Source: Bolinopsis microptera (Eukaryota; Ctenophora; Tentaculata; Lobata; Bolinopsidae). From it: a stretch of DNA of 64,000 bases. The translations under genes and the position numbers were made by a program. The stretch is from assembly GCF_026151205.1 (NCBI RefSeq), contig NC_087077.1, forward strand, positions 17,161,475 to 17,225,474. Direction: 5' to 3'. Positions within the stretch are counted from its first letter, which is position 1, and the number at the start of each line of letters is the position of its first letter. The notes under the pieces are model-generated. The model saw only the letters and a list, made by a program, of their open reading frames with translations. It did no database searches and had not been told where the DNA came from. Of the stretch, positions 2,688 through 29,180 are shown in pieces.

Positions 2688-5600
2688 ATGGAAGAAATCC
2701 AAGACATCCTGAAGATAACGTTTAAAAGTCTGAAGAAGAAAGATGCGGACTTGAAAAATGTTTTGGATACACGTTGTCAAAAATGCTGCCGGAATTTAGT
2801 TCTTGAACAAAATTTCAAAAGAGGTATAATAACTTCCAAATGACACGTCATTTCACCATATTACGGAAAATTCCTTGATTTCACCCTCTACTTGCAATCT
2901 TATATCCAGGGCCCCTAATCCCCTTATCTCCAGGGCTCCCTAATCACCTTATCACCAGGGTCCCCTAATTATCTTATCTCCAGGGCCCCCTAATTATCTT
3001 ATCTCCAGGCCCCCTAATTATCATATCTCCAGGCCCCCTAATTATCATATCTCCAGGCCCCCTAATTATCTTATATCCAGGCCCCCTAATTATCTTATAT
3101 CCAGGGCCCCCTAATTATCTTATCTTCAGGTCCCCTAATTATCTTATTTCCAGGCCCCCTAATTATCTTACATCCATGGCCCCCTAATTATCTTATCTCC
3201 AGGCCCCCTAATTATCTTATATCCATGGCCCCCTAATTATCTTATCTCCAGGCCCCCTAATAATCATATATCCAGGCCCCCTAATTATCTTATCTCCAGG
3301 GCCCCCTAATTATCTTATATCCAGGCCCCCTAATTATCTTATCTCCAGGGCCCCCTAATTATCTTATCTCCAGGCCCCCTAATTATCTTATATTCATGGC
3401 CCCCTAATTATCTTATCTCCAGGCCCCCTAATAATCATATATCCAGGCCCCCTAATTATCTTATCTCCAGGCCCCCTAATTATCTTATCTCCAGGGCCCC
3501 CTAATTATCTTATATCCAGGCCCCCTAATAATCATATATCCAGGCCCCCTAATTATCTTATCTCCAGGGCCCCCTAATTATCTTATATCCAGTGCCCCCT
3601 AATTATCTTATCTCCAGGCCCCCTAATTATCTTATATCCATGGCCCCCTAATTATCTTATCTCCAGGCCCCCTAATAATCATATATCCAGGCCCCGTAAT
3701 TATCTTATCTCCAGGGCCCCCTAATTATCTTATCTCCAGGCCCCCTAATTATCTTATCTCCAGGGCCCCCTAATTATCTTATATCCAGGCCCCCCAATCA
3801 CCTTATCTTCAGGGCCCCCTAATTATCTTATCTCCAGGCCCCCTAATTATCTTATCATCAGGGCCCCCTAATTATCTTATCTCCAGAACCCCGTAGCGAC
3901 CCACCCTCTGAACACCTCTCCCCTCCATCCTCTTGGTCTGTCTACTCTCACTCCAACTACCCCGGTCTATTGGTTGTGAAGGGAGCGTTCTCACCTGATG
4001 GACTTACAGATCTACTGAGCAAACTGCTGTTAGACTACCAAGTCCAAGATAAATGGGGAGCTGATGTTAGGTTTTATTATTTTCTTTATCCGAAGACTTT
4101 TTAGAGTAGAATAGTTTTTGTCAAGTACTAGGATTTGTAATTTTCATCTTTTTACCGACCTTTATAAAGTTAGCTTACAAACTGTAGCACGAGGCACCCA
4201 CCCACTTGATTTTAGAATGATAACTTTAGATTTCAAAGATTAATGAACGTTAGAAATCTTGTGCAGGTCAAATCTAAGTTGTCTTGGAATAACTTGCCCT
4301 GAAAGCAAAAGTTACTGGTCTACTACAGACGATCAAGAACATCTTCTCATTGATAAACTCCGCTGGGTTTCAAATGGGTAAGCATGTCCATCATAATCCT
4401 CCACTTCAATGATATGCAGTATAGGTACATGATACATCTTAATTTTCTAGATGAAAAAGTAATTTGAGGTGATAATTGAGTTTAATAATGACTTGAATAG
4501 TTTTCAAAAACTAGGAGTAGGATGCGTTCTTTTGCACTTACTTTACAGCTCACTTTACAGCTTACTTTACAGCTTACTTTACAGCTTACTTTACAGCTTA
4601 CTTTACAGCTTACTTTACAGCTTACTTTATCTAATCTAAACCTTCCTTTGCAGCTATCATTTTGACTGGACTAAGCGAGAGTATCGGACAGGGTTCAAGT
4701 CTCAATTTCCTGACGATCTGGCAGATATTGGTTACAGTGTCGTGAAAAGGTTGGGGGGGGGGGGGGGGGGGGGGTCCAACCCGATGTCCGATATGAGGGT
4801 TGATGAGGCCAAAATCGGAATCGGAAAAATCGGAAAAATCGGAAAATTGAGAAATTTACAGAATCGATCTCTAAAACCTCTCAGAAGTGATATAATTCAA
4901 CCAGAACCCCTACATATGCTATATTGTTATAAGAAAACAAACCAATTGGACATTCCAATAGTATGTTTTATGTGTTTTTCCACTGCAGGGGCTTATTAGT
5001 ATGCTCACTACTAGTTGGAGTTGTCATGTACTCCCAGACCCGAGTGCTTTGGCCTTTTGACGTGACATCGATTGTTAAATTGTTTCTGCTCATTAATTTT
5101 ATCCCTGTTACTTGTTATTATGTATTAGTACAACACTAGGTACCGGGTTATATTTTGTGGTCCGGTCTTAAAACATACCATGATATCACTAGTACACTGC
5201 ACCTTAAATGTATACCAGTAGTAGTCAAGTACATTTGTATCGTAACACATGCTTGGCTGGGGGATCATGTTTTGTGTCCGTTCGGTACCCTATATTTTCA
5301 AAACGGAAAAAAAGTAGGGCGAACAAAAACGGACAAAAACAGACAAAACATTTACATGTCCTCCTCCTCCCTAGTCTTCCTCCTCCTTCTCATCAGTCCT
5401 CCTCCTCCTCCTAAGTCTTCCTCCTCCTCCTGAGTCCTTCTCCTCCTCAGTTCTCTTCAGTCCTCTTCCTGACTCCTCGTCCTCGTCCTCGTCCTTCTCC
5501 TCAATCCTCCTCACCCTGCTCCTCAGTCCCCTCCTCCTCCTCAGTCCTACTCCCAGTCCTCCTCCTTCTCCTTCTCCTCCTCCTCCTCCTCATTTCTCCT

Positions 5601-8600
5601 CCTCATTTCTCCTCCTCATCCTCCTCCTCCTTCTCCTCCCCATCAGTCCTCCTGAGTCCTCATAGTCGTCATCCTCCTCCTCATCCTCGTCCACCTCCTG
5701 AGTCCTCCTTCTGAGTCCTCCTCCTCATCCTCCTCCTCAGTCATCCTCCTCTTCCTCCTCAGTCCTCCCCAGTCCTCCTCCTCCTCAGTCCTCCTCCTCC
5801 TTAGTCCTCCTCCTCCTCACCAATCAGCTGCTCCTCTTCCTCAGTCCTCCCTCTCCTCTTCAGTCCTCCTCCTCCTCAGTCCTCCTCCTCCTCAGTCCTC
5901 CTCGGTCCTTCTCCTCCTCCTCAGTCCTCCTCGGTCCTTCTCCTCCTCCCCAATCCTTCTCTTTCTCCTCAGTCTTCCTCCTTCTCCTCCTCCTCCTCCT
6001 CAGTTCTCCTCCTCAACCTCCTCCTCCTTCTCCTCTTCCTTCTCCTCCTAATCAGTCCTCCTCCTCAGTCGTCCTCTTCATGTCCTTAGTCATCGTCCTC
6101 ATCCTCATCGTCCTTAGTCCTCGTCCTCATCCTCCTAGTCCTCGTCCTTAGTCCTCGTCCTCATCCTCCTAGTCCTCGTCCTGGTCCTCCTCTGTCCTCC
6201 TCAGTCCTCCTTCTCCTCAGTCCTCAGTCCTCCTCCTCAGTCCTCAGTCCTCCCCCAGTCCTCCTTCTCCTCCTCCTCATCCTCAGTCCTCCTCCTCCTT
6301 CTCTTTCTTATCAGTCCTCCTCCTCAGTCCTCGCTCTCGTCCTCGTCCTCAGTCCTTTTCGTCCTTAGCCCTCGCGTTCTCTTAGTCCTCCTCCTCCCCG
6401 TCCTCAGTCCTCCTCTTCCTCCTCACCAATCCTGCTCCTCTTCCTCAGTCCTCCCTCTCCTCTTCAGTCCTCCTCCTCCTCCTCTGTCCTTCTGGGTCCT
6501 TCTCCTCCTCATCAGTCCTCCTCCTCCTCAGTCTTCCTCCTTCTCCTCCTCCTCCTCTCTTTTAATGTTATTTAAAATTGTGTAGACTATTCTTTGTATC
6601 TAACTGAGGATTGGAAGTTTGAGAAAGGACCATGGTCAATGGTCATTAACCGTGCTACCCATTTCTGCAGATAGCCTGTTACAAATTGTGGAGACAATTT
6701 AAATCAAAAGTTACTAAAGCGTTCCCTATTTGTTACTATTGTTATTACCAACCGTACCTCTTTCAATTGTGGACCGGGGTGGATGTTTCTGTCAAACAAG
6801 AGTTGATACGACAGTGTGTTGTTTTTCGGACGAAACGATTCTTGTTTGGAACTAGAAACCATTTTGGGGTTCTGGGACCACCACCAATCGATTTCTTGTC
6901 ATATTTAAGTACAGAAATAGCTACATATATCGCCTAGAAACCTCAGAGGAAAGATTTAAATTTTCCCGATTTTTCCGATATGAGGGTTGATGAGGCCAAA
7001 ATCGGGATCGGAATGATCGGAAATGATCGGGTTGGACCCCCCCCCAAAGGTTACAAGATAGTAATTGAATTTAAATTTGCACTATAAAAATTGATTTCAA
7101 AGACATAAGTTAAAATAATATCCTCACGTTACGCACTAACACATTAATATTACTCCAGCTTGCATTATATAATAACTAGAAAACCCGTGGTCACAGGTGA
7201 CAGGGAGAAAGCTAATAGTATTTTTTGTTAATAAGTTTAAATCGCGTCAAAAAATATCCGTCACAACCAAAGATACAGCCGACTTAAATGTTGCTCTTAC
7301 TTAACACAGCGTAATATCAACAAAACCGATCAAAATGACGTTAAAACAATCATTGCACGTGCACGTGCGCGCGTGTAATAACTCAAATACCCTCGTTACC
7401 GTGGTAACTACGCAAGTTCATATTTCTCATCTAATTTGCACGTGGGCGGTCGTACATACAGACAACATAAATAATTCTTTGAATTATAGTAGAGATAGTT
7501 GGTTCTAAAAGAATAAGCAGTTACATCACTGCTTATAATGTGATAACATTATTTTCACAACTTTGAGTCGTGAAAATAGTTTTATCCAACGAGTTTGATA
7601 AAACGAGTTACATACCGAGTTTGACGAGGTGTGTAACTCATGTTATCATAAGAGTAATTAAACTCTTGATTTCAGTCTGAGAGTCAGCAGTGACGTGAAG
7701 CCAGACTCAGCAATAATGAACTTTTATCATCCAGGAGATACTCTCTCCTTCCACACAGATGAACTTGAGTGGGATCTGAGCAAGCCTCTTGTATCGATTA
7801 GCTTAGGTATGCGGGCTTTTCAAATATATTTCTTATCCAGATCAGTTAAGAATTTACCTGATCAAGCTCTGATATTGATCCTAAAAACGTATAAAGTACG
7901 AATACGACCGTGAAAATTTAGTGTTGTCAATTATATTCGACTCCTCGAATAACCCCTCAAATAACCCCTCAAATAACCACTCAAATAACCCCTCAAATAA
8001 CCCCTCAAATAACCCCTCAAATAACCCCGCAAATAACCCCTCAAATAACCCCTCAAATAACCCCTCAAATAATCCCTCAAATAACCCCTCAAATAACCCT
8101 TCAAATAACCCCTCAAATAACCCCTCAAATAACCCCGCAAACAACCCCTCAAATAACCCCTCAAACAACCCCTTAAACAACCCCTCAAATAACCAGATTT
8201 ACCGGGAATACTCTGTGTGGGAGGAACAACAAAGTCTGACCCACCCATCTCCCTCCTCCTCACGCACGGAGATATCATCATTCTGTCAAATACCCCTCAA
8301 ATAACCCCTCAAATAACCCCTCAAATAACCCCTCAAATAACCCCTCAAATAACCAGGTTACCGGGAATACTCTGTGTGGGAGGAACAACAAAGTCTGACC
8401 CTCCCATCTCCCTCCTCACGCACGGAGATATCATCATTCTGTCAAATAACCCCTCAAATAACCCCTCAAATAACCCCTCAAATAACCCCTCAAATAACCC
8501 CTCAAATAACCCCTCAAATAACCAGGTTTACCGGGAATACTCTGTGTGGGAGGAACAACAAAGTCTGACCCTCCCATCTCCCTCCTCCTCACGCACGGAG

Positions 8601-8908
8601 ATATCATCATTCTGTCTGGACCCTCTCGTCTGGCATACCACGCTGTACCTAAGGTCTTCACCTCATACCATGTGAGAACATGCGAGCATGAGGTGGTTAG
8701 TAGTTCAGACTTGAAAAGTGAGGAGGATCACAATGTTGGGTCGGATGTACCGCGCTGGATAAGTCAGTTTGTTGATGGCTTGTCTTCAGACCGGTTAGAG
8801 AAGATTGATAAGTCCTTATCTGCTGAAGAGTTGAAGGAGAGGATCAGAAAGTTTTTGCCGAGGACAAGATTCAATATCAGTATTAGGCAGGTAGAAAAAT
8901 ATGAGTGA
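2688..8908 (+). CDS. ALKBH1: ALKBH1: nucleic-acid dioxygenase, AlkB homolog 1
   Basis: Fe(II)/2-oxoglutarate-dependent dioxygenase. In animals ALKBH1 demethylates or oxidises modified bases in tRNA, in cytosol and mitochondria. I assemble six exons with consistent phases: 2688-2823, 3887-4070, 4267-4377, 4654-4749, 7676-7806 and 8526-8908, giving 346 residues (human about 389). Exon 1 has the N-terminal motif DADLKNVLD. Exons 3-4 encode LIDKLRWVSNGYHFDWTKRE, which matches the human [20 protein letters not shown] region. Exon 5 has the double-stranded beta-helix start MNFYHPGD with the iron-binding HxD (FHTD) and KPLVSISLG. Exon 6 has GDIIILSGPSRLAYHAVPKV with the distal His, and ends with RTRFNISIRQV including the 2OG-binding Arg. 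Introns 1, 2 and 5 each end in a tandem repeat built on the acceptor. A G/C-capped element sits 3 nt after exon 4. AATAAA lies at 8929-8934. Confidence 0.93.
2905..3886 (+). repeat. 24-25 bp minisatellite whose unit carries a splice acceptor
   Basis: About 40 units, each roughly CCCCCTAATTATCTTA followed by TCTCCAGG. Every unit holds a branch-point-like CTAAT, a pyrimidine tract and CAG/G. The last unit ends exactly at the real acceptor of ALKBH1 exon 2 (AG at 3885-3886). The array therefore looks like a tandem amplification of the native 3' end of intron 1. Variants have TATATCCAGG, TCATCAGG or a missing G. Confidence 0.9.
4544..4653 (+). repeat. 12-bp tandem repeat of acceptor-like sequence before ALKBH1 exon 4
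   Basis: About seven copies of CTTACTTTACAG fill 4544-4630, ahead of the true acceptor (CCTTCCTTTGCAG, AG at 4652-4653). Each copy ends in a pyrimidine tract plus CAG. This is the second array in the same gene built from a 3' splice-site motif. Confidence 0.85.
4753..7045. mobile_element. G/C-capped TIR element A in ALKBH1 intron 4
   Basis: The element starts with 22 G (4753-4774) followed by TCCAACCCGAT, and ends with ATCGGGTTGGA followed by 9 C (7037-7045), a clear terminal inverted repeat. Inside each end lies a short tandem ATCGGAAAA-type repeat; the motif GATATGAGGGTTGATGAGGC occurs near both ends. The interior holds a roughly 1.2-kb (TCC)n-rich pyrimidine block (about 5358-6560), preceded by a segment at 5262-5345 shared with element B. 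A 7-bp direct repeat AAAGGTT flanks it (4746-4752 and 7046-7052). No transposase frame is visible, so it is probably non-autonomous. The target duplication includes the exon 4 splice donor. Confidence 0.75.
5358..6560 (+). repeat. (TCC)n homopyrimidine block inside element A
   Basis: Pyrimidine-rich sequence of TCC/TCAGTCC units with almost no purines except the A/G of CAGTCC. Open frames read through it are low-complexity Ser/Pro/Leu and are not considered genes. Long polypyrimidine tracts of this kind can form triplex (H-DNA) structures; that is known chemistry, not shown here. Confidence 0.85.
7436..7497. repeat. Dispersed repeat copy (pair with 54220-54290)
   Basis: The stretch beginning TTGCACGTGGGCGGTCGTAC and ending near AATTCTTTGAATTATAGTA occurs here in ALKBH1 intron 4 and again at about 54220-54290 in a GTF3C3 intron, in the same orientation. 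The second copy carries an extra TACATTATACAT tandem. It looks like an interspersed repeat of unknown class. Confidence 0.6.
7943..8525 (+). repeat. 11-bp minisatellite with two partial copies of ALKBH1 exon 6
   Basis: Units of AATAACCCCTC fill 7943-8190, 8288-8353 and 8442-8520. Two partial copies of the 5' part of ALKBH1 exon 6 are embedded (about 8195-8287 and 8356-8441). Each starts at an AACCAG acceptor and stops at the same place, after ATCATCATTCTGTC. The functional exon follows at 8526. The second copy lacks one T after the acceptor and one CTC triplet, so it is out of frame. No donor site follows the copies, so they are not complete duplicate exons. Confidence 0.88.
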
Positions 8909-8928
8909 ATAAGCTACTTTGCGTCGAA

Positions 8929-8934
8929 AATAAA
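8929..8934 (+). promoter_or_regulatory. Polyadenylation signal of ALKBH1
   Basis: AATAAA lies 21 nt after the ALKBH1 stop codon. Confidence 0.6.
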
Positions 8935-9204
8935 TCTTTCGTGATTCCATTTCTTTATTTGTTGGTAAAATTGTTGCATTTTTGATCTTCGATATGTTAT
9001 GCAGTTTTGTATGTTGAATATGATTATATCATATTAAAGTATTAAGTTCTTAATAATGTAATATACAGATTTAATTGATATTTTATTAGTTCATTTTCTT
9101 ATCACAGTTCAATGTTTCATTACACACACTACGCAATGTATCCCAACTTAAAATGATAGTTACCCTGTTAGTAAAAACAGCGTAGGTATCTTTAACAGAA
9201 TCAT

Positions 9205-12200
9205 GTCGTGCAACTTCTAATACCCTATACTTTATAAGCAGAATGGTTCCATACAGTTGTAGTATTTCTTTACCCTATACTTTATAAGCAGAATGGTTCC
9301 ATACAGTTGCAGTATCTTTAACAGAACCATGTCGTGCAACTTCTAATACCCTTTACTTAATAAGCAGAATGGTTCCATACAGTTGCAGTATTTCTAATAC
9401 CCTATACTTTATAAGCAGAATGGTTCCATACAGTTGTAGTATTTCTAATACCCTATACTTTATAAGCAGAATGGTTCCATACAGTTGCAGTATTTCTAAT
9501 ACCCTATACTTTATAAGCAGAATGGTTCCATACAGTTGCAGTATTTCTAATACCCTTTACTTTATAAGCAGGATGGTTCCATACAGTTGCAGTATTTCTA
9601 ATACCCTATACTTTATAAGCAGAATGGTTCCATACAATTGCAGTATTTCTAATACCCTATACTTTATAAGCAGAATGGTTCCATACAGTTGCAGTATTTC
9701 TTTACCCTTTACTTTATAAGCAGAATGGTTCCATACAGTTGCAGTATTTCTTTACCCTATACTTTATAAGCAGAATGGTTCCATACAGTTGCAGTATTTC
9801 TAATACCCTATACTTTATAAGCAGAATGGTTCCATACAGTTGCAGTATTTCTAATACCCTTTACTTTATAAGCAGGATGGTTCCATACAGTTGCAGTATT
9901 TCTAATACCCTATACTTTATAAGCAGAATGGTTCCATACAATTGCAGTATTTCTAATACCCTATACTTTATAAGCAGAATGGTTCCATACAGTTGCAGTA
10001 TTTCTTTACCCTATACTTTATAAGCAGAATGGTTCCATACAGTTGCAGTATTTCTAATACCCTTTACTTTATAAGCAGAATGGTTCCATACAGTTGCAGT
10101 ATTTCTAATACCCTATACTTTATAAGCAGAATGGTTCCATACAGTTGCAGTATTTCTTTACCCTATACTTTATAAGCAGAATGGTTCCATACAGTTGCAG
10201 TATTTCTAATACCCTATACTTTATAAGCAGAATGGTTCCATACAGTTGCAGTATTTCTTTACCCTATACTTTATAAGCAGAATGGTTCCATACAGTTGCA
10301 GTATTTCTAATACCCTTTACTTTATAAGCAGAATGGTTCCATACAGTTGCAGTATTTCTAATACCCTATACTTTATAAGCAGAATGGTTCCATACAGTTG
10401 CAGTATTTCTTTACCCTATACTTTATAAGCAGAATGGTTCCATACAGTTGCAGTATTTCTAATACCCTATACTTTATAAGCAGAATGGTTCCATACAGTT
10501 GCAGTATTTCTAATACCCTTTACTTTATAAGCAGAATGGTTCCATACAGTTGCAGTATTTCTAATACCCTATACTTTATAAGCAGAATGGTTCCATACAG
10601 TTGCAGTATTTCTTTGTCGTGCAACTTCTAATACCCTATACTTTATAAGCAGAATGGTTCCATACAGTTGTAGTATTTCTAATACCCTTTACTTTATAAG
10701 CAGAATGGTTCCATACAGTTGCAGTATTTCTAATACCCTATACTTTATAAGCAGAATGGTTCCATACAGTTGCAGTATTTCTTTACCCTATACTTTATAA
10801 GCAGAATGGTTCCATACAGTTGCATTATTTCTAATACCCTATACTTTATAAGCAGGATGGTTCCATACAGTTGCAGTATTTCTTTGTCGTGCAACTTCTA
10901 ATACCCTATACTTTATAAGCAGAATGGTTCCATACAGTTGTAGTATTTCTAATACCCTTTACTTTATAAGCAGAATGGTTCCATACAGTTGTAGTATTTC
11001 TAATACCCTATACTTTATAAGCAGAATGGTTCCATACAGTTGCAGTATTTCTAATACCCTATACTTTATAAGCAGAATGGTTCCATACAGTTGCAGTATT
11101 TCTAATACCCTATACTTTATAAGCAGAATGGTTCCATACAGTTGCAGTATTTCTTTGTCGTGCAACTTCTAATACCCTATACTTTATAAGCAGAATGGTT
11201 CCATACAGTTGTAGTATTTCTAATACCCTATACTTTATAAGCAGAATGGTTCCATACAGTTGTAGTATTTCTAATACCCTTTACTTTATAAGCAGAATGG
11301 TTCCATACAGTTGCAGTATTTCTAATACCCTATACTTTATAAGCAGAATGGTTCCATACAGTTGCAGTATTTCTTTACCCTATACTTTATAAGCAGAATG
11401 GTTCCATACAATTGCAGTATCTTTAACAGAATCATGACGTGCAACTTCTAATACCCTATACTTTATAAGCAGAATGGTTCCATACAGTTGTAGTATTTCT
11501 AATACCCTTTACTTTATAAGCAGAATGGTTCCATACAGTTGCAGTATTTCTTTACCCTATACTTTATAAGCAGAATGGTTCCATACAGTTGCAGTATCTT
11601 TAACAGAATCATGACGTGCAACTTCTAATACCCTATACTTTATAAGCAGAATGGTTCCATACAGTTGTAGTATTTCTAATACCCTTTACTTTATAAGCAG
11701 AATGGTTCCATACAGTTGCAGTATTTCTAATACCCTATACTTTATAAGCAGAATGGTTCCATACAGTTGCAGTATTTCTAATACCCTATACTTTATAAGC
11801 AGAATGGTTCCATACAGTTGCAGTATTTCTTTGTCGTGCAACTTCTAATACCCTATACTTTATAAGCAGAATGGTTCCATACAGTTGTAGTATTTCTAAT
11901 ACCCTTCACTTTATAAGCAGAATGGTTCCATACAGTTGCAGTATTTCTAATACCCTATACTTTATAAGCAGAATGGTTCCATACAGTTGCAGTATTTCTT
12001 TACCCTATACTTTATAAGCAGAATGGTTCCATACAGTTGCAGTATCTTTAACAGAATCATGACGTGCAACTTCTAATACCCTATACTTTATAAGCAGAAT
12101 GGTTCCATACAGTTGTAGTATTTCTAATACCCTTTACTTTATAAGCAGAATGGTTCCATACAGTTGCAGTATTTCTAATACCCTATACTTTATAAGCAGG

Positions 12201-12290
12201 ATGGTTCCATACAGTTGTAGTATTTCTAATACCCTATACTTTATAAGCAGAATGGTTCCATACAGTTGCAGTATTTCTTTACCCTTTCCC
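9205..12290 (+). repeat. 51-bp satellite array carrying the PCC1 start codon in each unit
   Basis: About 60 units of a 51-bp repeat: AATACCCTATACTTTATAAG, CAGAATGGTTCCATACAGTT, GCAGTATTTCT. The unit is a multiple of three without stops and reads MVPYSCSIS-NTLYFISR. The same MVPYSCSIS is the predicted N-terminus of the PCC1 homolog that begins in the last unit. Variant units carry TTTACCC instead of AATACCC, or a longer linker with TTTAACAGAATCATG(T/A)CGTG and CAACTT, which recurs every few units and gives a higher-order pattern. Open frames within the array are repeat read-through, not separate genes. Confidence 0.93.
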
Positions 12291-12777
12291 TCGGAACGAC
12301 TAGCCACTATAGCTATGAGAAGTGTTGCTGCCGACAAGGAACCCAGAAAATCAGGTATTTCATTTGACACGTCATGGTTTTCCAGAAAGAGACGCATGGT
12401 CTTTTCTTTTTTAGACTTGTTTTGAAGTATTTGTGATCATGGAAATTTCAAAATAGCATTAACATTAATTGTAGGTACATTGATTAATAGTAGGTACATA
12501 TTCATTTAAACTGTGATACTTGCTAGCTATAGTATTTGCGTAGCAATGATTTAAGTAATTTATTATGCTTTTGTAAATAAAATATTTTTTTTTAAAATAA
12601 AAAAATATTAAAAATACCAAACCAGGCGTAACACGTGACCTGAAGGTGAGCGGACCAGTGTTACAGGTGACAATATCCTCATCCGAACTCAGATGTCTCC
12701 GAGTATCTGTCGGCTCGATCCTGGAGCTGCTCAAACTGTCGTGTAACACAATGGAAATGTTTGATACTAAATCATGA
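12252..12777 (+). CDS. LAGE3: PCC1/LAGE3 homolog, KEOPS complex subunit
   Basis: KEOPS (EKC) makes the t6A37 modification of ANN-decoding tRNAs; Pcc1/LAGE3 is its small dimerising subunit. Exon 1 is 12252-12354 and exon 2 is 12626-12777, joined in phase 1, giving 84 residues (yeast Pcc1 88). SISLPFPSERLATIAMRSVA matches the start of the fold (IPF-x-E-x-A-IA), and DLKVSGPVLQVTISS plus LRCLRVSVGSILELLKL matches the conserved second half (LRISVINFLDQLSL in human). The start is chosen at 12252 because it gives the expected length. It lies in the last 51-bp satellite unit, two bases after TTATAAGCAG. Whether extra upstream in-frame repeat units are translated, through starts at 12099, 12150 or 12201, is unknown. 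Confidence 0.85.
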
Positions 12778-13324
12778 CGGTAACAAAAGGCTCTTAATTA
12801 TATTTATAACTACAGTTCAGGTACAAAGGATACAGATTTAGACAGCTCTAGCTCTGTTATCGTGTGTTATTGTGTACGAATTTCAGTGTACAGATAAGCG
12901 AGACATTCAGCTTTTCTTTTTGTCACACGAAGTCATAAGATTGAGTCGCATATAATATGACGTGCGCGAAGAACTGGTGCTGTATGTAATTTAAGTGACA
13001 TATTCATTTGTTTATTTATTCGTTTATCTATTCATATTCATTAATTTATGACTGAACGTATTGATTAAAAAGTCCCTGCTATTGTATACTTTTAAGATAA
13101 ATCGTGTTTGATTGCCTAGCGTCTAGTATGGGTGGGATCTTATAGAGACATTAAATCTCAACCTTTTTAATTTCATTGCAGGTCGAGTCTTGATCATATT
13201 ACTCAATATTACCTTTGTCTCTTGTAATTTCATATTTAATCCAAGATTGCTGTTTCCATTTTCCATGCCTTTATTTTGAGTCTGAACATCTCTCTCAGGC
13301 TAATGTGATGTAATCTGGTTCACC
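12778..13324. other. Intergenic region PCC1 to RPP38
   Basis: AT-rich with no gene seen. A pyrimidine-rich acceptor-like CTCTCTCAG ends at 13298, 26 nt before the RPP38 start codon. Confidence 0.4.
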
Positions 13325-20300: not shown

Positions 20301-23300
20301 AGGAGAACCGGTATATACCTTCTAGTCAATCTCTTGTCCCCCAACATATTTGATCTAAAGTTCGTGCTAGTTATATATGGTAGAGGAGAACAGGTATATA
20401 CCTTCTAGTCAATCTCTTGTACCCCAACATATTTGATCTAAAGTTCGTGCTAGTGATATATGGTAGAGGAGAACAGGTATATACCTTCTAGTCAATCTCT
20501 TGTCCCCCAACATATTTGATCTGAAGTTCGTGCTAGTTATATATGGTAGAGGAGAACAGGTATATACCTTCTAGTCAATCTCTTGTCCCCCAACATATTT
20601 GATCTAAAGTTCGTGCTAGTTATATATATGGTAGAGGAGAACAGGTATATACCTTCTAGTCAATCTCTTGTCCCCCTAGATATTTGATCTAAAGTTCGTG
20701 CTAGTTATATATATATATAATATGAAATATATTTTTGTCTGCTTTAATTGATACTAAATAAAATTGTTGTTTTCTTGAAATTGTTGTTTTCTTGAACAGG
20801 GCGCTACTGGAGCACCGGGGCGTGGTCTACATTAACACGGACATTGCGGAGGGGGGAGAGTGTTTGAGGGTGGATGCTACTGGCTCGCCTCTCTACCAGA
20901 ACCTCACTGGTACTGTGTGATATTATTTACCTGCTACATATAATAATGTTATATTAATGCTTTTCAAACACTATACATAATGTTATATACTACGTAATAT
21001 TATATTATATACTACCATAATAATATATTAGTATCATATTAACTATACTACTGAGTAATTAAATTATCGAGATAAAAACATCTACATCATCACAACTGAT
21101 TCTAAGTTTCCACTTCTTCTAAATGTATCCCCCAAATAAAGTGCGCCTTAACTAAAACACCCTCCCAGGCACAGTACTGGGTGCTGTGAACAACGAGGGT
21201 TTCCAGAGACTGGATCTGTCCGGTAGTGGGTCCGACATGTACGGGTTCTATTGTTACGCGGGGGTCAGTGTGATCAACGTTAACTGCCAGTCGTACGCTG
21301 ATGTTTATCATACTATCTACGATGAGCAGCAGTTGTTTGAGGTCGTGGACAAGGATTACAAGAATTTAGCTAAAGTCGCCTCAAGTTTAGCGCAGGTACT
21401 AATGATTGCTATGAATGTACGTAATTAATTGGTATAAACGCTTAATCAATAAGTAGGACTATTCCAAGGTTTCTATAGTCAGTTCTCAATAGTATTAAGT
21501 TAATTATTAATATATATAATATTAATTATTAAGTATTAAGTTAATTATTAATACCCGATATTCCAGTTAGTTGTCGGGGTAAGTGAGCCGGCCCTAGTAC
21601 CCGGCAGAATTGTGGAATACGGAAACAGAATACAAGAATGGTGGGATATGTTGAAACCTAAGATCTTACAGACCTTCACTCGTCTGGACATTGACGAGGA
21701 GCTGATTCACATATTGGATAATACCTTGTTTGAGTTGGGGAGAGCCGCTAACACTTTCAAGGTGTGTTGTGTATATAATGTGTCTTTTAGTTGTGTCTTT
21801 TAGTTGTGTCTTTTAGTTGTGTCTTTTAGCTTCGTATCTTTTATAATGGGGGGGGGGGGGGGGGGGGGTGTCACGTCCGTCTATGTCCGCTTGTCTCATA
21901 GAATCCAAAAAGGACAGGACATAGGCGGACATAGACGGACATAGGCGGACATAGGCGGACATTAATGGACACCTAAATTGCTAAATAAAATGTTCAATTT
22001 TTGCTGTTATAGGGGGATCATGTTTTTGTCCGTTCGGTACCCTATATTTTCAAAACGGACATAAAAATAGAGCGGACAAAAATGGACAAAAACGGACAAA
22101 AATGGAAATAACATTTAGATGCTTCCTCCTCCTACTCTTCCTCCTCCTCCCCTGGGTCTTCCTGATCTTCCTCAGTCCTCTTCCTCCTCCCCTCCTCAGT
22201 CCTCCTACTCCTCCTCCTCGTCCTCAGTCCTCCTCATCAGTCCTCAACAGTCCTCCTCCTCCCCAGTCCTCCTCCTCCTCCTGAGTCCTCCTCCTGAGTC
22301 CTCCTCCTGGGTCCTCCTCCTGGGTCCTCCTCCTCTTCATCCTCCTCCTCTTCCTCCTCAGTCCTCCTCCTCATCCTTCTCCTCAGTCCTCCATCCTCCT
22401 CCTCAGTCCTCCCCCAGTCCCCCTCCTCCTCCTCCTATTCAGTCCTCCTCCTCCTCCTCCTCCTTCTCAGTCCTCCTCAGTCCTCCTCCTCCTCCTGAGT
22501 CCTCCTCCTCCCCCTCCTCCTCTTCCCTCTCCTTCATCCTCCTCAGTCATCCTCCTCAGTCCTCCTCAGTCCTCCTCCTCAGTCCTCCTCCTCCTGGGTC
22601 CTCCTCTTCATCCTCCTCCTGGGTCCTCCTCGGTCCTCAGTCCTCCTCCTCCTGGGTCCTCCTCCTCATCCTTCTCATCAGTCCTCCTCCTCCCCAGTCC
22701 TCTCCCAGTCCCCTCCTTCTCCTCCTCCTATTCAGTCCTCCTACTCCTCCTCCTCCTCAGTTCTCCTCAGTCCTCCTTCTCATTTCTCCTAAGTCCTCCT
22801 CCTGAGTCCTCCTCCTGAGTCCTCCTCCTCCTCCTCCTCTTCCCTCTCAGTCATCCTCCTCAGCCATCCTCCTCAGTCCTCCTCCTCCTGGGTCCTCCTC
22901 CTCCTCTTCATCCTCCTCCTCGGTCCTCCTCGGTCCTCAGTCCTCCTCCTCCTGGGTCCTCCTCCTCATCCTTCTCATCAGTCCTCCTCCTCCCCAGTCC
23001 TCTCCCAGTCCCCCTCCTTCTCCTCCTCCTATTCAGTCCTCCTCCTCCTCCTCCTCAGTTCTCCTCAGTCCTCCTTCTCATTTCTCCTAAGTCCTCCTCC
23101 TGAGTCCTCCTCCTGAGTCGTCCTCCTCCTCCCTCTCAGTCATCCTCCTCAGCCATCCTCCCCAGCCATCCTCCTCAGCCATCCTCCTCAGTACTCCTCA
23201 GTCCTCCTCCTTCTCAGTCATCGTCAGTCCTCCTCCTCAGTCCTCCTCAGTCCTCCTCCTCAGTCCTCCTCAGTCCTCCTCCTCCCCCTCCTCCTCTTCC

Positions 23301-26300
23301 CTCTCAGTCATCCTCCTCAGTCATCCTCCTCAGTCCTCCTCAGTCCTCCTCCTCAGTCCTCCTCCTCCTGGGTCCTCCTCTTCATCCTCCTCCTGGGTCC
23401 TCCTCGGTCCTCAGTCCTCCTCCTCCTGGGTCCTCCTCCTCATCCTTCTCATCAGTCCTCCTCCTCCCCAGTCCTCTCCCAGTCCCCTCCTTCTCCTCCT
23501 CCTATTCAGTCCTCCTACTCCTCCTCCTCCTCAGTTCTCCTCAGTCCTCCTTCTCATTTCTCCTAAGTCCTCCTCCTGAGTCCTCCTCCTGAGTCCTCCT
23601 CCTCCTCCTCCTCTTCCCTCTCAGTCATCCTCCTCAGCCATCCTCCTCAGTCCTCCTCCTCCTGGGTCCTCCTCCTCCTCTTCATCCTCCTCCTCGGTCC
23701 TCCTCGGTCCTCAGTCCTCCTCCTCCTGGGTCCTCCTCCTCATCCTTCTCATCAGTCCTCCTCCTCCCCAGTCCTCTCCCAGTCCCCCTCCTTCTCCTCC
23801 TCCTATTCAGTCCTCCTACTCCTCCTCCTCCTCAGTTCTCCTCAGTCCTCCTTCTCATTTCTCCTAAGTCCTCCTCCTGAGTCCTCCTCCTGAGTCCTCC
23901 TCCTCCTCCTCCTCTTCCCTCTCAGTCATCCTCCTCAGCCATCCTCCTCAGTCCTCCTCCTCCTGGGTCCTCCTCCTCCTCTTCATCCTCCTCCTCGGTC
24001 CTCCTCGGTCCTCAGTCCTCCTCCTCCTGGGTCCTCCTCCTCATCCTTCTCATCAGTCCTCCTCCTCCCCAGTCCTCTCCCAGTCCCCCTCCTTCTCCTC
24101 CTCCTATTCAGTCCTCCTCCTCCTCCTCCTCAGTTCTCCTCAGTCCTCCTTCTCATTTCTCCTAAGTCCTCCTCCTGAGTCCTCCTCCTGAGTCGTCCTC
24201 CTCCTCCCTCTCAGTCATCCTCCTCAGCCATCCTCCCCAGCCATCCTCCTCAGCCATCCTCCTCAGTACTCCTCAGTCCTCCTCCTTCTCAGTCATCGTC
24301 AGTCCTCCTCCTCAGTCCTCCTCAGTCCTCCTCCTCAGTCCTCCTCAGTCCTCCTCCTCCCCCTCCTCCTCTTCCCTCTCAGTCATCCTCCTCAGTCATC
24401 CTCCTCAGTCCTCCTCAGTCCTCCTCCTCAGTCCTCCTCCTCCTGGGTCCTCCTCTTCATCCTCCTCCTGGGTCCTCCTCGGTCCTCAGTCCTCCTCCTC
24501 CTGGGTCCTCCTCCTCATCCTTCTCATCAGTCCTCCTCCTCCCCAGTCCTCTCCCAGTCCCCTCCTTCTCCTCCTCCTATTCAGTCCTCCTACTCCTCCT
24601 CCTCCTCAGTTCTCCTCAGTCCTCCTTCTCATTTCTCCTAAGTCCTCCTCCTGAGTCCTCCTCCTGAGTCCTCCTCCTCCTCCTCCTCTTCCCTCTCAGT
24701 CATCCTCCTCAGCCATCCTCCTCAGTCCTCCTCCTCCTGGGTCCTCCTCCTCCTCTTCATCCTCCTCCTCGGTCCTCCTCGGTCCTCAGTCCTCCTCCTC
24801 CTGGGTCCTCCTCCTCATCCTTCTCATCAGTCCTCCTCCTCCCCAGTCCTCTCCCAGTCCCCCTCCTTCTCCTCCTCCTATTCAGTCCTCCTCCTCCTCC
24901 TCCTCAGTTCTCCTCAGTCCTCCTTCTCATTTCTCCTAAGTCCTCCTCCTGAGTCCTCCTCCTGAGTCGTCCTCCTCCTCCCTCTCAGTCATCCTCCTCA
25001 GCCATCCTCCCCAGCCATCCTCCTCAGCCATCCTCCTCAGTACTCCTCAGTCCTCCTCCTTCTCAGTCATCGTCAGTCCTCCTCCTCAGTCCTCCTCAGT
25101 CCTCCTCCTCAGTCCTCCTCAGTCCTCCTCCTCCTCCTGGGTCCTCCTCCTCCTCCTCCTGGGTCCTCCTGGGTCTTCCTGATCCTCCCCAGTCCTCTTC
25201 CTCCTCCCCTCCTCAGTCCTCCTCCTACTCCTCCTCGTCCTCAGTCCTCCTCATCAGTCCTCAACAGTTCTCCTCCTCCCCAGTCCTCCTCCTCCTCCTG
25301 GGGCCTTTTCCTGGGTCCTCCTCCTGGGTCCTCCTCCTCCTGGGTCCTCCTCCTCCTGGGTCCTCCTTCTCCTCCTCAGTCCTTCTCCTCCTCCTCCTCA
25401 GTCCTCCTCCTCCCTCTAAGTCATCCTCCTCAGCCATCCTCCTCAGCCATCCTCCTCAGTCCTCCTCCTTCTCAGTCCTCCTCAGTCCTCCTGATCGAAT
25501 CCTCCTGATCCTGAGTCCTCCTCCTCCTCAGTCATCCTCCTCCTCAGTCATCCTCCTCAGTTCTCCTCCTCCTCCTCCTAGGTCCTCCTTCTGGGTCCTC
25601 CTCCTCCTCCTGGGTCTTCCTCAGTCCTCCTCCTCCCTCTCAGTCATCCTCCTCAGCCATCCTCCTCAGCCATCCTCCTCAGTCCTCCTCCGTCTCAGTC
25701 CTCCTCAGTCCTCCTGATCCTCCTGATCCTGAGTCCTCCTCCTCATCAGTCATCCTCCTCCTCAGTCATCCTCCTCAGTCCTCCTCCTCCCCAGTCCTCT
25801 CCCAGTCCTTCTCCTTCTCCTCCTCCTATTCAGTCCTCCTCCTCCTCCTCCTCAGTCCTCCTTCTCATTTCTCCTAAGTCCTCCTCCTGAGTCCTCCTCC
25901 TGAGTTCTCCTCCTCCTCCCTCTCAGTCATCCTCCTCAGTCATCCTCCTCAGCCATCCTCCCCAGCCATCCTCCTCAGCCATCCTCCTCAGTACTCCTCA
26001 GTCCTCCTCCTTCTCAGTCATCGTCAGTCCTCCTCCTCAGTCCTCCTCAGTCCTCCTCCTCAGTCCTCCTCAGTCCTCCTCCTCCTCCTGGGTCCTCCTC
26101 CTCCTCCTCCTGGGTCCTCCTGGGTCTTCCTGATCCTCCCCAGTCCTCTTCCTCCTCCCCTCCTCAGTCCTCCTCCTACTCCTCCTCGTCCTCAGTCCTC
26201 CTCATCAGTCCTCAACAGTTCTCCTCCTCCCCAGTCCTCCTCCTCCTCCTGGGGCCTTTTCCTGGGTCCTCCTCCTGGGTCCTCCTCCTCCTGGGTCCTC

Positions 26301-27782
26301 CTCCTCCTGGGTCCTCCTTCTCCTCCTCAGTCCTTCTCCTCCTCCTCCTCAGTCCTCCTCCTCCCTCTCAGTCATCCTCCTCAGCCATCCTCCTCAGCCA
26401 TCCTTCTCAGTCCTCCTCAGTCCTCCTGATCCTGAGTCCTCCTCCTCCTCAGTCATCCTCCTCCTCAGTCATCCTCCTCAGTTCTCCTCCTCCTCCTCCT
26501 AGGTCCTCCTTCTGGGTCCTCCTCCTCCTCCTGGGTCTTCCTGTTCCTTCTCCTCCCTCTCAGTCATCCTCCTCAGTCATCCTCCTCAGTCATCCTCCTC
26601 AGCCATCCTCCTCAGCCATCCTTCTCAGCCATCCTCCTCAGTACTCTTCAGTACTCTTCAGTACTCTTCAGTACTCTTCAGTCCTCAAAATGTTTGTCCG
26701 CTAATGTCCACCAATGTCCGCTAATGTCCACCAATGTCCATCCAAGTCCGCCAATGTCCGTCCGGGTCCGCCAATGTCCGTCCGAGTCCGCCAATGTCCG
26801 TCCAAGTCCGCCAATGTCCGTCCAAGTCCGCCAATGTCCGTCCGTGTCCGCCAATGTCCCAAAAAACACGTCCGTTGTCTCATAGAATCCAAAAAGGACA
26901 GGACATAGGCGGACATAGACGGACATGACACCCCCCCTATAATTCATTGTTGTTGCTCGGAAGTTGACATCATTAAAACAGTTTTAACCTAAGTTCTCAA
27001 GTTCTGTCGTACTTGTCTGGCTTGAAAGTTCCAGATAAACTAACAATTACTTCTACAGTCGGAGGTAACAGACAAATTGTCATCCGACAGTTCAGCGCTT
27101 GAAGTGAGAAGAGCGAATGATAAGATACTCCAGTTTGACAGAGCATTCCTTGTGGATCAGAAGATACCTGGTACCATGTTCTATTCTAGGAATGTTCTAG
27201 TGTCCCCCTCTTCTACTAACCTTTACATGGGTGAGAGCTCTTTAGTATTATAAATATTTAATTATTATCTAATTAATCGTTAATAAATAATAATAGCTCG
27301 TTATTAATATTAGGGGGGGGGGGGGGGGGGGTAACATTTTTTTGTTTTTTTTTGTTTAGGTAAAAGTAATTTTTTGAAAAAACAAAAAACAAAAAAATAC
27401 GTTATATTTCCTTAAAAGATATTTATGATATGATTGTTATCTTTAAAAGTCAAAACTCACACAGTATCGTGTAATATTGTGGTCTTAAATGATATCTAGT
27501 ATATTATCTTCGATTTTTGTCAGCGACTTTCTTTTCTTCTGAAACCGCACCATAATAAATATTGACAGTATTGTATAATATTGACCAAATGACAATTATT
27601 GTCTGTCTGTTCTTAAACTTTTAAAACCATATTTATTAACCAGATAATCGTCTACCCCAGGTTCAGGGTTTCCGGGGCTGCTTCACGCCGTGTCTCCAAC
27701 AGCCACTAAGCAAGAGATACTCACCCAGCTTGAGTATGTCAGATGGGCGCTGCACGCAGCCACTGCTGTTCTATCCTCTTAA
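14319..27782 (+). CDS. NAALAD/FOLH1-type glutamate carboxypeptidase (M28 family)
   Basis: Type II membrane metallopeptidase related to glutamate carboxypeptidase II and NAALAD2, which cleave C-terminal acidic residues from extracellular peptides. Twelve exons with consistent phases: 14319-14984, 15233-15408, 15606-15757, 19071-19162, 19446-19539, 19744-19844, 20219-20310, 20800-20909, 21169-21395, 21567-21761, 27059-27230 and 27661-27782, giving 732 residues (human FOLH1 750). One TM segment is near residues 48-72, then a PA-like insert ([20 protein letters not shown]). Peptidase motifs: [17 protein letters not shown] (Zn His and bridging Asp), [13 protein letters not shown] (catalytic and Zn Glu pair), INTD (Zn Asp), YHTIYDEQ (Zn His). 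A C-terminal dimerisation domain follows. All metal ligands are present. A GTG at 14277 would extend the frame, but ATG 14319 fits better. Intron 3 hosts a nested gene and a TIR element; intron 10 hosts element B. Confidence 0.93.
16451..16669 (+). pseudogene. C-terminal fragment of a non-LTR retrotransposon ORF2
   Basis: The 72-residue frame contains [20 protein letters not shown] followed by [12 protein letters not shown]. This matches the terminal signature of CR1/Jockey-type LINE reverse-transcriptase ORFs (F-x-R-x-x-x-LWN-x-LP-x-x-...-FK-x-x-L). It is followed by A-rich sequence with AATAAA-like motifs. Only the tail is present, so it is a dead 5'-truncated copy or a piece carried by the surrounding TIR element. 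Confidence 0.6.
17082..17501 (+). CDS. Unassigned ORF inside the TIR element
   Basis: 139 codons from ATG, ending in TAG. The N-terminus has FSCAVCRLK and then [28 protein letters not shown] and [18 protein letters not shown], a mix of a Cys-rich start and a hydrophobic core. No catalytic DDE motif is visible, and I cannot name the family. Because it lies between the TIRs it is probably cargo or a remnant of the element's own protein. The last 30 residues look degraded (Met/Ile-rich repeats). Confidence 0.35.
   Translation: MSLNSDRFSCAVCRLKKEGVFPVKVTCGHIPLEVSKLCHYFMVHGGLITGAVEDAKPRRSPIPSGGQEIKLRLTFRAVAPLADKMKVLLRQQYNFEFDGQQLRGISIMIMAGTLAIMRMRIRFNEDLTYYCLDLFSFIK
17911..18861 (-). CDS. Nested gene: coiled coil plus discoidin/F-lectin-like domain (partial)
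   Basis: Lies on the opposite strand inside intron 3 of the NAALAD gene. Exon 18861-18558 (acceptor TAG assumed) is rich in heptads ([34 protein letters not shown]) and includes a 45-bp coding tandem repeat ([15 protein letters not shown]). A donor (ACG/GTAAAC) joins in phase 0 to exon 18390-17911, which encodes about 159 residues ending in TAG. This domain, with [45 protein letters not shown] and [15 protein letters not shown], resembles a galactose-binding-like beta-sandwich of the discoidin/fucolectin type. The 5' exon with a start or signal peptide was not identified. Role unknown; extracellular sugar binding is an inference from fold resemblance. Confidence 0.55.
18772..18860 (-). repeat. 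45-bp in-frame tandem repeat in the nested gene
   Basis: Two full copies of a 45-bp unit plus a third partial copy. Each unit encodes [13 protein letters not shown] with a two-residue linker. The length is a multiple of three, so the frame is kept. Confidence 0.75.
20085..20228 (+). repeat. Three copies of the NAALAD exon 7 acceptor and exon start
   Basis: TATTTCCAGGGCTGGAGACC occurs at about 20089, 20181 and 20211. Copy 1 extends into the exon (AGAAGAACAATAAA) before diverging; copy 2 stops after GGAGACCT; copy 3 is the functional junction (exon from 20219). The decoy copies have intact pyrimidine-AG acceptors. Confidence 0.8.
20297..20710 (+). repeat. 83-bp tandem repeat duplicating the NAALAD exon 7 donor
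   Basis: Five copies start at 20297, 20380, 20463, 20545 and 20631. Each begins with the last bases of exon 7 and the donor (GTAGAGGAGAACCG/GTATAT; A for the last C in copies 2-5). Use of any downstream donor would read into TAG in the retained repeat, so only the first gives the full protein. Confidence 0.88.
21848..26937. mobile_element. G/C-capped TIR element B in NAALAD intron 10
   Basis: Starts with 21 G (21848-21868) then TGTCACGTCCGTCTATGTCC. Ends with GGACATAGACGGACATGACA and 7 C (26931-26937). The subterminal zone is a short tandem of GGACATAGGC units on the left and TCCGCCAATG units on the right. CATAGAATCCAAAAAGGACA occurs in the same orientation near both ends. The interior is about 4.6 kb of (TCC)n with higher-order repeats. 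A 6-bp direct repeat TATAAT flanks it. The segment at 22012-22110 is shared with element A. No transposase was found. Confidence 0.75.
22120..26690 (+). repeat. (TCC)n array with ~300/474-bp higher-order repeats
   Basis: Nearly pure pyrimidine with CAGTCC and TGGGTCC variants. The landmark TCCTCGGTCCTCAGTCC recurs at 22627, 22927, 23401, 23701, 24002, 24476 and 24776, so spacings are 300, 474, 300, 301, 474 and 300, a higher-order period of about 1,075 bp. Downstream, a block at about 25185-25420 is repeated at about 26130-26370. Ser/Pro open frames here are low complexity and rejected as genes. Confidence 0.88.
27313..27411. repeat. G19 tract with inverted A/T-rich arms (possible partial capped element)
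   Basis: 19 G (27313-27331) are followed by TAACATTTTTTTGTTT, a short middle, then AAAACAAAAAACAAAAAAAT and CGTTATA, forming an imperfect inverted repeat. There is no C tract at the right end. It resembles elements A-C but is not complete. Confidence 0.4.
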
Positions 27783-27876
27783 CTCCGCAATCATTCCAAG
27801 TTCTTACCGCCTTATTCAGTCATTCTGACGCTTTTTATGGGATATTTTGATGGAGGGAATTAAACTTGAACAGATT

Positions 27877-29148
27877 GGGGGGGGGGGGGGGGCAACCATA
27901 TTAAAGTATATTAAAGTATATCACCGGGTCAAAATCGGAGAAAATCCTACATTTTAATATACTTTAATATACCTACAATTAGAAGATTTATATTCTTCGT
28001 TAAGATTTACATGATGAACTATATTTTTCACTCAGATTCGCAAGATAAGCCTGTTTTAGGACTAGTACATGAATTTCCATCCAGATTGGTCAAAAATTGG
28101 CTGAGCTATGAGCTTTAAAAAATATGCCCATATTTGGGCATACGCTTTTGCCCAAATTCGCTTTTGCCCAAATTCGATAAAATTTCAATATTTTTTAATG
28201 AGACTAATTCTATGTGAAAGATATAACTCAGTGTTTGTTGAATATAGTGGATACTAAGTAAAAAGACCTCCATGAACAAAATTGGGAAAATTGCACATAA
28301 TATCTCGGTTCGGAATACTAGCCAAAATGACTTCATTAAAATTGAAATAACTCCATCAGTTTTCAATATTTTTTCAAGAACTTTTTGGAATCGATTAAGA
28401 ATTGCATTTCAAGCTTATTTTGGGCAACAATTTTTGATGTAGGCCTCCAAGGAGATAGGGATATAATAAAGTATATTGTAGGTATATTAAAGTATATTAA
28501 AGTATATCCCCGGGTCAAAATCGGGAAAAATCCTACATTTTAATATACTTTAATATACCTACAATTAGAAGATTTATATTCTTCGTTAAGATTTACATGA
28601 TGAACTATATTTTTCACTCAGATTCGTAAGATAAGCCTGTTTTAGGACTAGTACATGAATTTCCATCCAGATTGGTCAAAAATTGGCTGAACTATGAGCT
28701 TTAAAAAATATGCCCATATTTGGGCATACGCTTTTGCCCAAATTCGCTTTTGCCCAAATTCGATAAAATTTCAATATTTTTTAATGAGACTAATTCTATG
28801 TGAAAGATATAACTCAGTGTTTGTTGAATATAGTGGATACTAAGTAAATAAAGACCTCCATGAACAAAATTGGGAAAATTGCACATAATATCTCGGTTCG
28901 GAATACTAGCCAAAATGACTTCATTAAAATTGAAATAACTCCATCAGTTTTCAATATTTTTTCAAGAACTTTTTGGAATCGATTAAGAATTGCATTTCAA
29001 GCTTATTTTGGGCAACAATTTTTGATGTAGGCCTCCAAGGAGATAGGGATATAATAAAGTATATTGTAGGTATATTAAAGTATATTAAAGTATATCCCCG
29101 GGTCAAAATCGGGAAAAATCCTACATTTTAATATACTTTAATATGGTT

Positions 29149-29179
<31 letters not shown>

Positions 29180-29180
29180 C
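27877..29180. mobile_element. G/C-capped TIR element C between NAALAD and AATF
   Basis: Begins with 16 G (27877-27892) then CAACCATATTAAAGTATATT, and ends with TACTTTAATATGGTTGG then about 30 C (29151-29180). AGATT flanks both sides (27872-27876 and 29181-29185). The inside has two tandem copies of a 586-588 bp unit; the landmark GGGTCAAAATCGG occurs at 27926, 28512 and 29100. Each copy is bordered by a hairpin of TATTAAAGTATA against TATACTTTAATA. Frames found in the unit (28115-28366, 28701-28913) are the same chance frame in both copies. Confidence 0.78.

What the first reader, a model, noticed from the sequence alone, without database searches (positions are those of the whole stretch)
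4753..29180. A structural class of insertions capped by G tracts and C tracts
Three complete insertions (4753-7045, 21848-26937, 27877-29180) start with 16-22 G and end with 7-30 C. Just inside is an inverted repeat made of short tandem units that differ per element (ATCGGAAAA; GGACATAGGC; TTAAAGTATA). Each is flanked by a 5-7 bp direct repeat (AAAGGTT, TATAAT, AGATT). The termini share the G/C cap and the tandem-inverted design rather than a sequence, which I do not recognise in any named DNA-transposon superfamily. The caps could fold into G-quadruplexes or act as end-recognition sites. If the class is mobile, it may be undescribed.
Basis: partly seen in the sequence, partly recalled or inferred. 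Interest (0 to 1): 0.88.

Follow-up and report, generated by a model that had tools for sequence, protein, structure and literature searches.

The report
G/C-capped jumping DNA elements
An animal genome, probably a comb jelly's, carries many mobile DNA pieces that begin with a run of G, end with a run of C and bear the same directional hairpin at both ends; they look like a little-described branch of DNA transposons, possibly with its own unfamiliar enzyme.

Summary
The three insertions are real, as drawn. The window lies in a 264.65-Mb animal genome, probably a ctenophore's (inference). E3 (27877-29180) has at least 40 loci; of 28 read, 24 have both caps and 21 of these a 5-7 bp duplication; mismatched flanks give 12 of 1,056. 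One other element sits in a tandem repeat that shows the empty site. Genome-wide, 1,150 G-runs precede (N)CCAA against 96 in the reversed control, and such ends face each other (13 convergent, 1 divergent, 4 same-strand). A capped element, L090, carries broken parts of a protein family with DDE-like motifs and no significant Pfam, NCBIfam or PDB match; E3's interior matches DNA beside another member. Best reading: mostly non-autonomous transposons of an unclassified DDE-like lineage; no intact gene was read between caps. Cap lengths change after insertion. Caps' origin is open: some tiny inserts hold only caps and 5-12 bp.

The parts
4746..4752 (.). E1 left target-site duplication AAAGGTT
4753..4774 (+). 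E1 G cap (22)
4775..4785 (+). E1 outer terminal arm TCCAACCCGAT (inverted at 7026-7036)
4787..4836 (+). E1 left hairpin module, same direction as 6974-7023
6974..7023 (+). E1 right hairpin module
7037..7045 (+). E1 C cap (9)
7046..7052 (.). E1 right target-site duplication AAAGGTT
5259..6548 (+). E1 interior module, start motif plus (TCC)-rich array, 76% alike to E2 22012-23303
21842..21847 (.). E2 left target-site duplication TATAAT
21848..21868 (+). E2 G cap (21)
21885..21942 (+). E2 left hairpin module, same direction as 26870-26926; 21848-21975 folds with z -6.3
26870..26926 (+). E2 right hairpin module (the 78-nt piece 26860-26937 did not fold better than shuffles, z -0.7)
26931..26937 (+). 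E2 C cap (7)
26938..26943 (.). E2 right target-site duplication TATAAT
27313..27331 (+). solo G cap (19) of a fourth family; no C-capped partner found
27332..27405 (+). hairpin module of the fourth family; matched at many places, the following 235 bp hardly at all
27872..27876 (.). E3 left target-site duplication AGATT
27877..27892 (+). E3 G cap (16)
27898..27970 (+). E3 left hairpin module
28484..28556 (+). E3 middle hairpin module of the dimer, with the inner arms of both ends
29072..29144 (+). E3 right hairpin module, same direction as the left
29151..29180 (+). E3 C cap (30)
29181..29185 (.). E3 right target-site duplication AGATT

Best explanation
The insertions are DNA transposons, mostly non-autonomous, of one loosely related lineage. 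Each copy is G-cap, short terminal arm (usually (T)CCAA...), hairpin module, interior, the same hairpin module in the same direction, inverted arm, C-cap, between a 5-7 bp (usually 6) duplicated target. A transposase joins the ends to a target cut with about a 6-bp stagger (shown: duplications and one empty site; inferred: the chemistry). The best candidate enzyme is the L092-type protein: an open frame (766 aa in the genome, 614 read) with D (SIDATAV), D (VADDGD), DPLHCAKKIRNQ and a conserved NEQ, in the order of a DDE transposase with an insertion domain (motif reading inferred, partly recalled). The caps lie at the 3' ends of both strands as C tracts; they begin as terminal G/C and change length by slippage after insertion (length change shown for one duplicated insertion; slippage inferred). 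Because the terminal modules are direct repeats, unequal exchange between them would give dimers such as the window's E3 (inferred).
For: E3: 42 full matches at 40 loci, with only 40 of 1,283 first-look candidates scored, so a lower bound; 28 of the 40 read, 24 with both caps, 21 with a duplication >=5 bp (5 bp in 4, 6 in 15, 7 in 2); over all 33 elements tabulated 30 match, mismatched flanks 12 of 1,056. Two more (L046, L060) show AGTAAT and AAAATCT if an interrupted C tract is allowed, and L059 shows AGGTAG with a cap of GG (read by eye). In 20 E3 sites, element orientation, the duplication starts with A in 19 and ends with T in 17. Empty site: element O (L040 3706-7984) splits a tandem repeat whose neighbouring unit reads straight through GTTCCCA. 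L089 and L090 were chosen by position alone and both show a duplication (AGCTGGT, AGATTA). Genome-wide: G12-NCCAA 1,150 against 96 reversed; all sixteen A/C 4-mers in that place total 5,398 positions, so about 283 for each of the other fifteen, though runs followed by five such letters count twice there; adjacent ends within 10 kb, among the 100 places listed: 13 convergent, 1 divergent, 4 same-strand. Direct modules beat inverted ones in 10 of 10 elements of seven families. Protein: capped L090 carries stretches matching L092 371-611 in three frames; its 154-aa piece has 88 matches in the genome, L092 76; E3 interior versus DNA just upstream of the L091 frame: 312 bp, 65%, E 8e-24, 0 of 50 block-shuffled controls. 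Length change: the L018 and L074 copies of one insertion have G32/C24 and G17/C25.
Against: The protein in L090 is broken and could be passenger DNA. E1, L090, L040's elements and the 27250-27870 stretch show no DNA match to L091; E2 has one 75-bp match at E 2e-4. Mini-inserts with 5 or 12 bp between caps have no hairpin, so caps alone can accompany a 7-bp duplication, which a transposase that reads arms and modules does not explain. Duplication length is not fixed. 21,517 of 22,667 G-runs >=12 are not followed by NCCAA, and some lie in arrays or poor assembly. Of the 28 E3 loci, L048 and L051 lack the second end and L007's is masked; L053 matches over 4 bp only.
Confidence: 0.6

Rival explanations
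1. Caps are made afresh at every insertion: a terminal-transferase-like activity adds C to both 3' ends of a linear DNA (or G to both target 3' ends) and the tailed DNA, of any sequence, is joined to a staggered break.
For: C tracts lie at both 3' ends in the elements read; cap lengths vary from 2 to 30 among E3 copies 98-99% alike; the letters just inside the cap vary between such copies (CCAACC, CAACC, TGTCAACC, CCGGGCAACC); mini-inserts G32-12 bp-C24 and G13-5 bp-C19 have 7-bp duplications, and L016 has G17C between ACAAGAGC repeats.
Against: (T)CCAA and the modules are conserved inside the caps, so ends are not arbitrary. Cap length changes after insertion, so variation need not date from birth. 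Of nine mini loci fetched only two show a duplication, one of them a copy of L018.
Confidence: 0.25
2. Non-autonomous Polinton/Maverick derivatives: linear DNA replicated by protein-primed polymerase with sliding-back on terminal G, integrated with 6-bp duplication.
For: Polintons with open polymerase frames are present (20 matches); one has 6-bp duplication CAGGAT.
Against: That Polinton ends in AGTAGTATA, not G; no G/C run >=7 in the three pieces that hold it. Seven capped elements show no DNA match to six Polinton pieces and no match to the polymerase frame searched in two halves. Only this Polinton's two ends were read.
Confidence: 0.05
3. LTR-retrotransposon-like (TRIM) elements: direct terminal repeats, 5-6 bp duplications, dimers.
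For: Direct modules at both ends; two dimers, the window's E3 and L049.
Against: In the 21 of 24 E3 copies where at least two loops were caught, left (GGAAAAAA, once GGAGAAAA) and right (GGGAAAAA, once GGGGAAAA) loops stay different, whereas LTRs are made alike at each cycle (recalled); no TG..CA ends.
Confidence: 0.04
4. Assembly artefact: homopolymer errors.
For: One stretch read, L039 (C1:580001-590000), is plainly homopolymer-inflated.
Against: Caps sit exactly between duplication and arm at many separate loci, and 1,150 against 96.
Confidence: 0.03

Closest known systems
Foldback transposons (Galileo of the P superfamily, FB, Tetris)
   Same: Long, internally repetitive ends (start of the abstract of PMC3573991 and title of PMC4079207, listing)
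   Different: G/C caps; the main modules are direct, not inverted; the candidate protein L092 has no match to any Pfam model up to E 5; that Pfam holds P-type models is recalled
Dada
   Same: 6- or 7-bp duplications (passages of PMC3706591)
   Different: Dada has no terminal inverted repeats and inserts in small RNA genes; here there are outer arms and varied AT-rich sites
IS3EU/GingerRoot
   Same: Usually 6-bp duplications (passages of PMC10045372)
   Different: TA..TA termini there; G..C here
Polinton/Maverick
   Same: 6-bp duplication; present in the same genome
   Different: AG.. ends, a 428-bp plain inverted repeat and a polymerase gene in the one read

Membership tests
DNA transposon with terminal inverted arms | Target-site duplication at many independent loci | tested here: met
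   21 of 24 E3 copies with both caps; 12 of 1,056 mismatched pairs
DNA transposon with terminal inverted arms | Empty site | tested here: met
   one case, element O in a tandem repeat; no sister species or alleles available
DNA transposon with terminal inverted arms | Inverted terminal arms | tested here: met
   exact outer arms of 5-29 bp in 8 of 8 elements compared
DNA transposon with terminal inverted arms | Linked transposase | tested here: inconclusive
   broken parts in capped L090; E3 interior alike to DNA beside the L091 frame; no intact capped copy read
P superfamily / Foldback | P-type transposase | tested here: inconclusive
   no Pfam match up to E 5 and no PDB match up to E 10 for L092; a profile of 3 sequences gave only an unrelated enzyme at E 0.22; resemblance of the DxxHxxKxxRN stretch is recalled
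P superfamily / Foldback | Internally repetitive ends that are inverted throughout | tested here: not met
   main modules direct in 10 of 10 elements
Polinton/Maverick | AG.. ends and protein-primed polymerase | tested here: not met
   ends; no polymerase match in 7 capped elements
Dada | Insertion in small RNA genes, no terminal inverted repeats | tested here: not met
   outer arms present; Rfam gave 0 matches in window 4600-30000, which covers the three window insertions only
Dada | Dada transposase | not testable with these tools
   no Dada protein sequence at hand
IS3EU/GingerRoot | TA..TA termini | tested here: not met
LTR/TRIM | Terminal repeats made alike by reverse transcription | tested here: not met
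   left and right loops stay distinct in E3

The most novel reading that the evidence does not exclude
A transposition pathway in which homopolymer C tails at both 3' ends are themselves the mobile signal: tails are built at each event and are enough to insert any DNA, from 5-bp fillers to 6.7-kb elements, with a roughly 6-bp stagger, served by a DDE-like enzyme lineage outside the known superfamilies.
Probability: 0.2. Interest if true: 0.92.

Novelty: new variant of a known kind. Interest (0 to 1): 0.64.

Why it matters
If right, a numerous and partly young group of animal transposons may have gone undescribed because its ends are homopolymers that repeat filters tend to hide (inference). 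It offers a testable question (are the tracts copied or made at insertion?), a candidate enzyme family without a Pfam match, and a rule (direct hairpin modules under inverted arms) that can be searched in other genomes. It also accounts for a part of this genome's 22,667 G-runs >=12 (the 1,150 followed by NCCAA are candidates).

Tried and rejected
Protein-primed (Polinton) origin of the caps: dropped after the one Polinton whose two ends were read lacked them and capped elements showed no match to Polinton pieces. RNA-based origin: no Rfam match in 4600-30000 and E3 loops not made alike. Coding pieces in element N of L040: nothing above Pfam's cut-offs, two chance-level matches at E 0.13 and 0.17; the L090 piece had one chance-level match at E 0.12. 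Relatives of the L092 protein in viral contigs: none confirmed. L039 was dropped from all counts as a homopolymer-inflated stretch. The fourth family (27313): 46 of the 48 rows were used (two that match outside the module were left out), 42 after removing overlaps; adjacent matches within 3 kb were 8 same strand and 6 opposite, the opposite ones all involving weak matches of 77-79% identity on an A/T-rich palindrome; the outermost pair is same-strand at each of the 10 loci with two or more, but five of these pairs lie only 64-116 bp apart and may be neighbouring modules rather than two ends (outermost pairs read by eye). Single-strand folding: left end of E2 (z -6.3), left end of E3 (-3.5), the 27313 module (-3.5) and, weakly, the right end of E3 (-2.1, 6 of 200 shuffles as good) fold better than shuffles; both ends of E1, the right end of E2 and 49458 do not. 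Selection caution: E1, E2, O, N, M and L018 were found by a script that asked for a flanking repeat, and L081 was taken from nine mini loci because it had one, so their duplications are no independent test; E3 copies, L089 and L090 were not so chosen. Of the nine mini loci fetched, two showed a duplication (one being a copy of L018) and seven did not; L077 and L079 share flanks and L076 is the middle of a palindrome.
Full report
WHERE IT IS. The window is G000:C6:17161475-17225474 of a 264,652,675-bp assembly in 232 contigs. Its size and large contigs fit the ctenophore Bolinopsis microptera, listed with 265 Mb and 13 chromosomes in a table of PMC11797021 (passages); the scaffold number there (346) differs, and no call identified the species, so this is inference.

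THE OBSERVATION. All three insertions are as described. Long G/C runs are not expected by chance.

WHAT THE ENDS REALLY ARE. In every family read, an outer arm is inverted (5 to 29 bp exact in the 8 elements compared), but the main repeat is a stem-loop lying in the same direction at both ends. Because its stem is palindromic it looks inverted. Direct alignment of the first and last 160 bp inside the caps scores 41-70, inverted 15-29, best of 100 shuffles 11-12, in 10 of 10 elements of seven families: E1, its relative L089, E2, E3 (3 of the 24 tabulated copies), N and O in L040, M in L041, P in L090. In E3 the left loop reads GGAAAAAA and the right GGGAAAAA, with single variants in L001 and L055; in 3 of 24 copies only one loop was caught by the search pattern. 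The middle module of the window's dimer carries the inner arms of both ends (ATTGTAGGT ... ACCTACAAT), as unequal exchange between direct modules would give (inference). L049 is a second dimer among the 28 E3 loci read.

MOBILITY. E3 has 42 full matches at 40 loci with only 40 of 1,283 candidates scored. Of 28 loci read, four did not enter the table: L007 (right end masked), L048 and L051 (right end missing), L059 (left cap only GG, duplication AGGTAG). Of 24 in the table, 21 have a duplication of 5-7 bp, L053 has 4 bp, and L046 and L060 score zero by script but show AGTAAT and AAAATCT when the tract is allowed another base or two (by eye). L052 and L062 have the same flanks and count once in the list of 20 sites. 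Those sites begin with A (19 of 20) and end with T (17 of 20). Element O gives an internal empty site in a tandem array, and N lies inside O with its own 7-bp duplication. E1 has 40 matches for its left end (40 of 247 candidates scored) and E2 51 match rows (40 of 983 scored), both lower bounds. L089, an E1 relative of 6.7 kb, holds what looks like a fragment of a reverse transcriptase (named from recall). E1 and E2 share an interior module at 76% over 1,365 bp.

GENOME-WIDE SIGNAL. There are 22,667 runs of G >=12 on both strands, some in dense arrays such as C1:2615495-2620926 or C1:1284139-1287940. 1,150 are followed by NCCAA against 96 for the pattern read backwards; all sixteen A/C 4-mers in that place total 5,398 positions, where a run followed by five such letters counts twice. 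In the 100 places listed, 18 adjacent pairs lie within 10 kb: 13 convergent, 1 divergent, 4 same-strand. Four of the six E1 left ends on C1 have such a run directly before them in the list.

CAPS. Lengths run from 2 (L059) to 32 (L018). One mini-insertion is present twice with shared flanks, with G32/C24 in one copy and G17/C25 in the other, so tracts change after insertion. The letters at the cap's inner edge vary between near-identical copies. Tiny inserts with 12 and 5 bp between caps have 7-bp duplications; another, G17C, lies between 8-bp repeats. These do not fit a simple model in which a transposase reads the arms, and are the main reason to keep the tailing model alive; excision footprints or internal deletions are other ways to make them (inference).

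THE ENZYME. L090 is capped (G20, C24, AGATTA) and carries on its minus strand stretches matching L092 residues 371-611, in three different frames, so the gene there is broken or interrupted. Its 154-aa piece has 88 matches in the genome, among them five at 100%, itself included. L092 has one full copy in the list and many partial ones, mostly of the C-terminal half (76 matches, 72 of 144 candidates scored), which may mean introns or truncated copies. L092 (614 aa read of an open 766) and L091 have no match in Pfam or NCBIfam (E up to 5), and L092 none in PDB (E up to 10); L091 had four chance-level PDB matches. The motif reading (D149, D285/286, DPLHCAKKIRNQ, E511; positions) comes from the sequence and from recalled transposase motifs. 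S507, D508, N510, E511 and Q512 are invariant in the three members aligned. The link to E3 does not depend on L090: 312 bp of E3's interior align at 65% with DNA directly upstream of the L091 frame (E 8e-24; 0 of 50 block shuffles), while L090, E1 and L040's elements gave no DNA match to L091 and E2 one of 75 bp at E 2e-4. I could not read the ends of the L091 or L092 elements, so whether they are capped is unknown.

WHAT IS SHOWN AND WHAT IS NOT. Shown: insertions, duplications, one empty site, direct modules, the shared (T)CCAA, length change of caps. Inferred: DDE chemistry, that the L092 family moves the elements, the origin of the caps, the species. In print: the searches listed no paper on G/C-capped transposons, and only the listed rows were looked at; two searches were for other purposes. 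Of the papers I saw passages (PMC3706591, PMC10045372, PMC11797021, PMC12221973) and one whole section (section 9 of PMC12221973), otherwise listings with the start of abstracts.

Noticed in passing
52340-52547: 34.7 copies of GGTTAG, a telomere-type repeat inside the chromosome.
   Followed up: no
2897-3886, 9341-12285, 43337-44247: Long minisatellites with 24-, 51- and 41-bp units.
   Followed up: no
G000:C10:10242363-10251421 (L083, L084): A Polinton with 428-bp inverted repeats, 6-bp duplication CAGGAT and an open protein-primed polymerase frame; 20 polymerase matches in the genome.
   Followed up: partly
G000:C7:6690411-6705670 and two places on C9: Polinton-type polymerase genes lie in inverted pairs about 8-11 kb apart; near-perfect inversion was checked for the C7 pair only.
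   Followed up: partly
L086:4645-6160: A long, nearly palindromic array of short ATTATTAATGACGGGT-type units.
   Followed up: no
L039 (C1:580001-590000): Assembly stretch with inflated homopolymers, likely low quality.
   Followed up: no
L076 (C1:9019100-9019270): G15-CTAA-C20 at the centre of a palindrome with 19-bp arms CCTTAGTCGGTAATATTAT / ATAATATTACCGACTAAGG.
   Followed up: no
G000:C1:2615495-2620926: Array with a G run >=12 often about every 58-60 bp (positions).
   Followed up: no
G000:C1:14930439-14934579: Capped ends spaced like element N inside O at C1:435710, perhaps a second nested pair.
   Followed up: no
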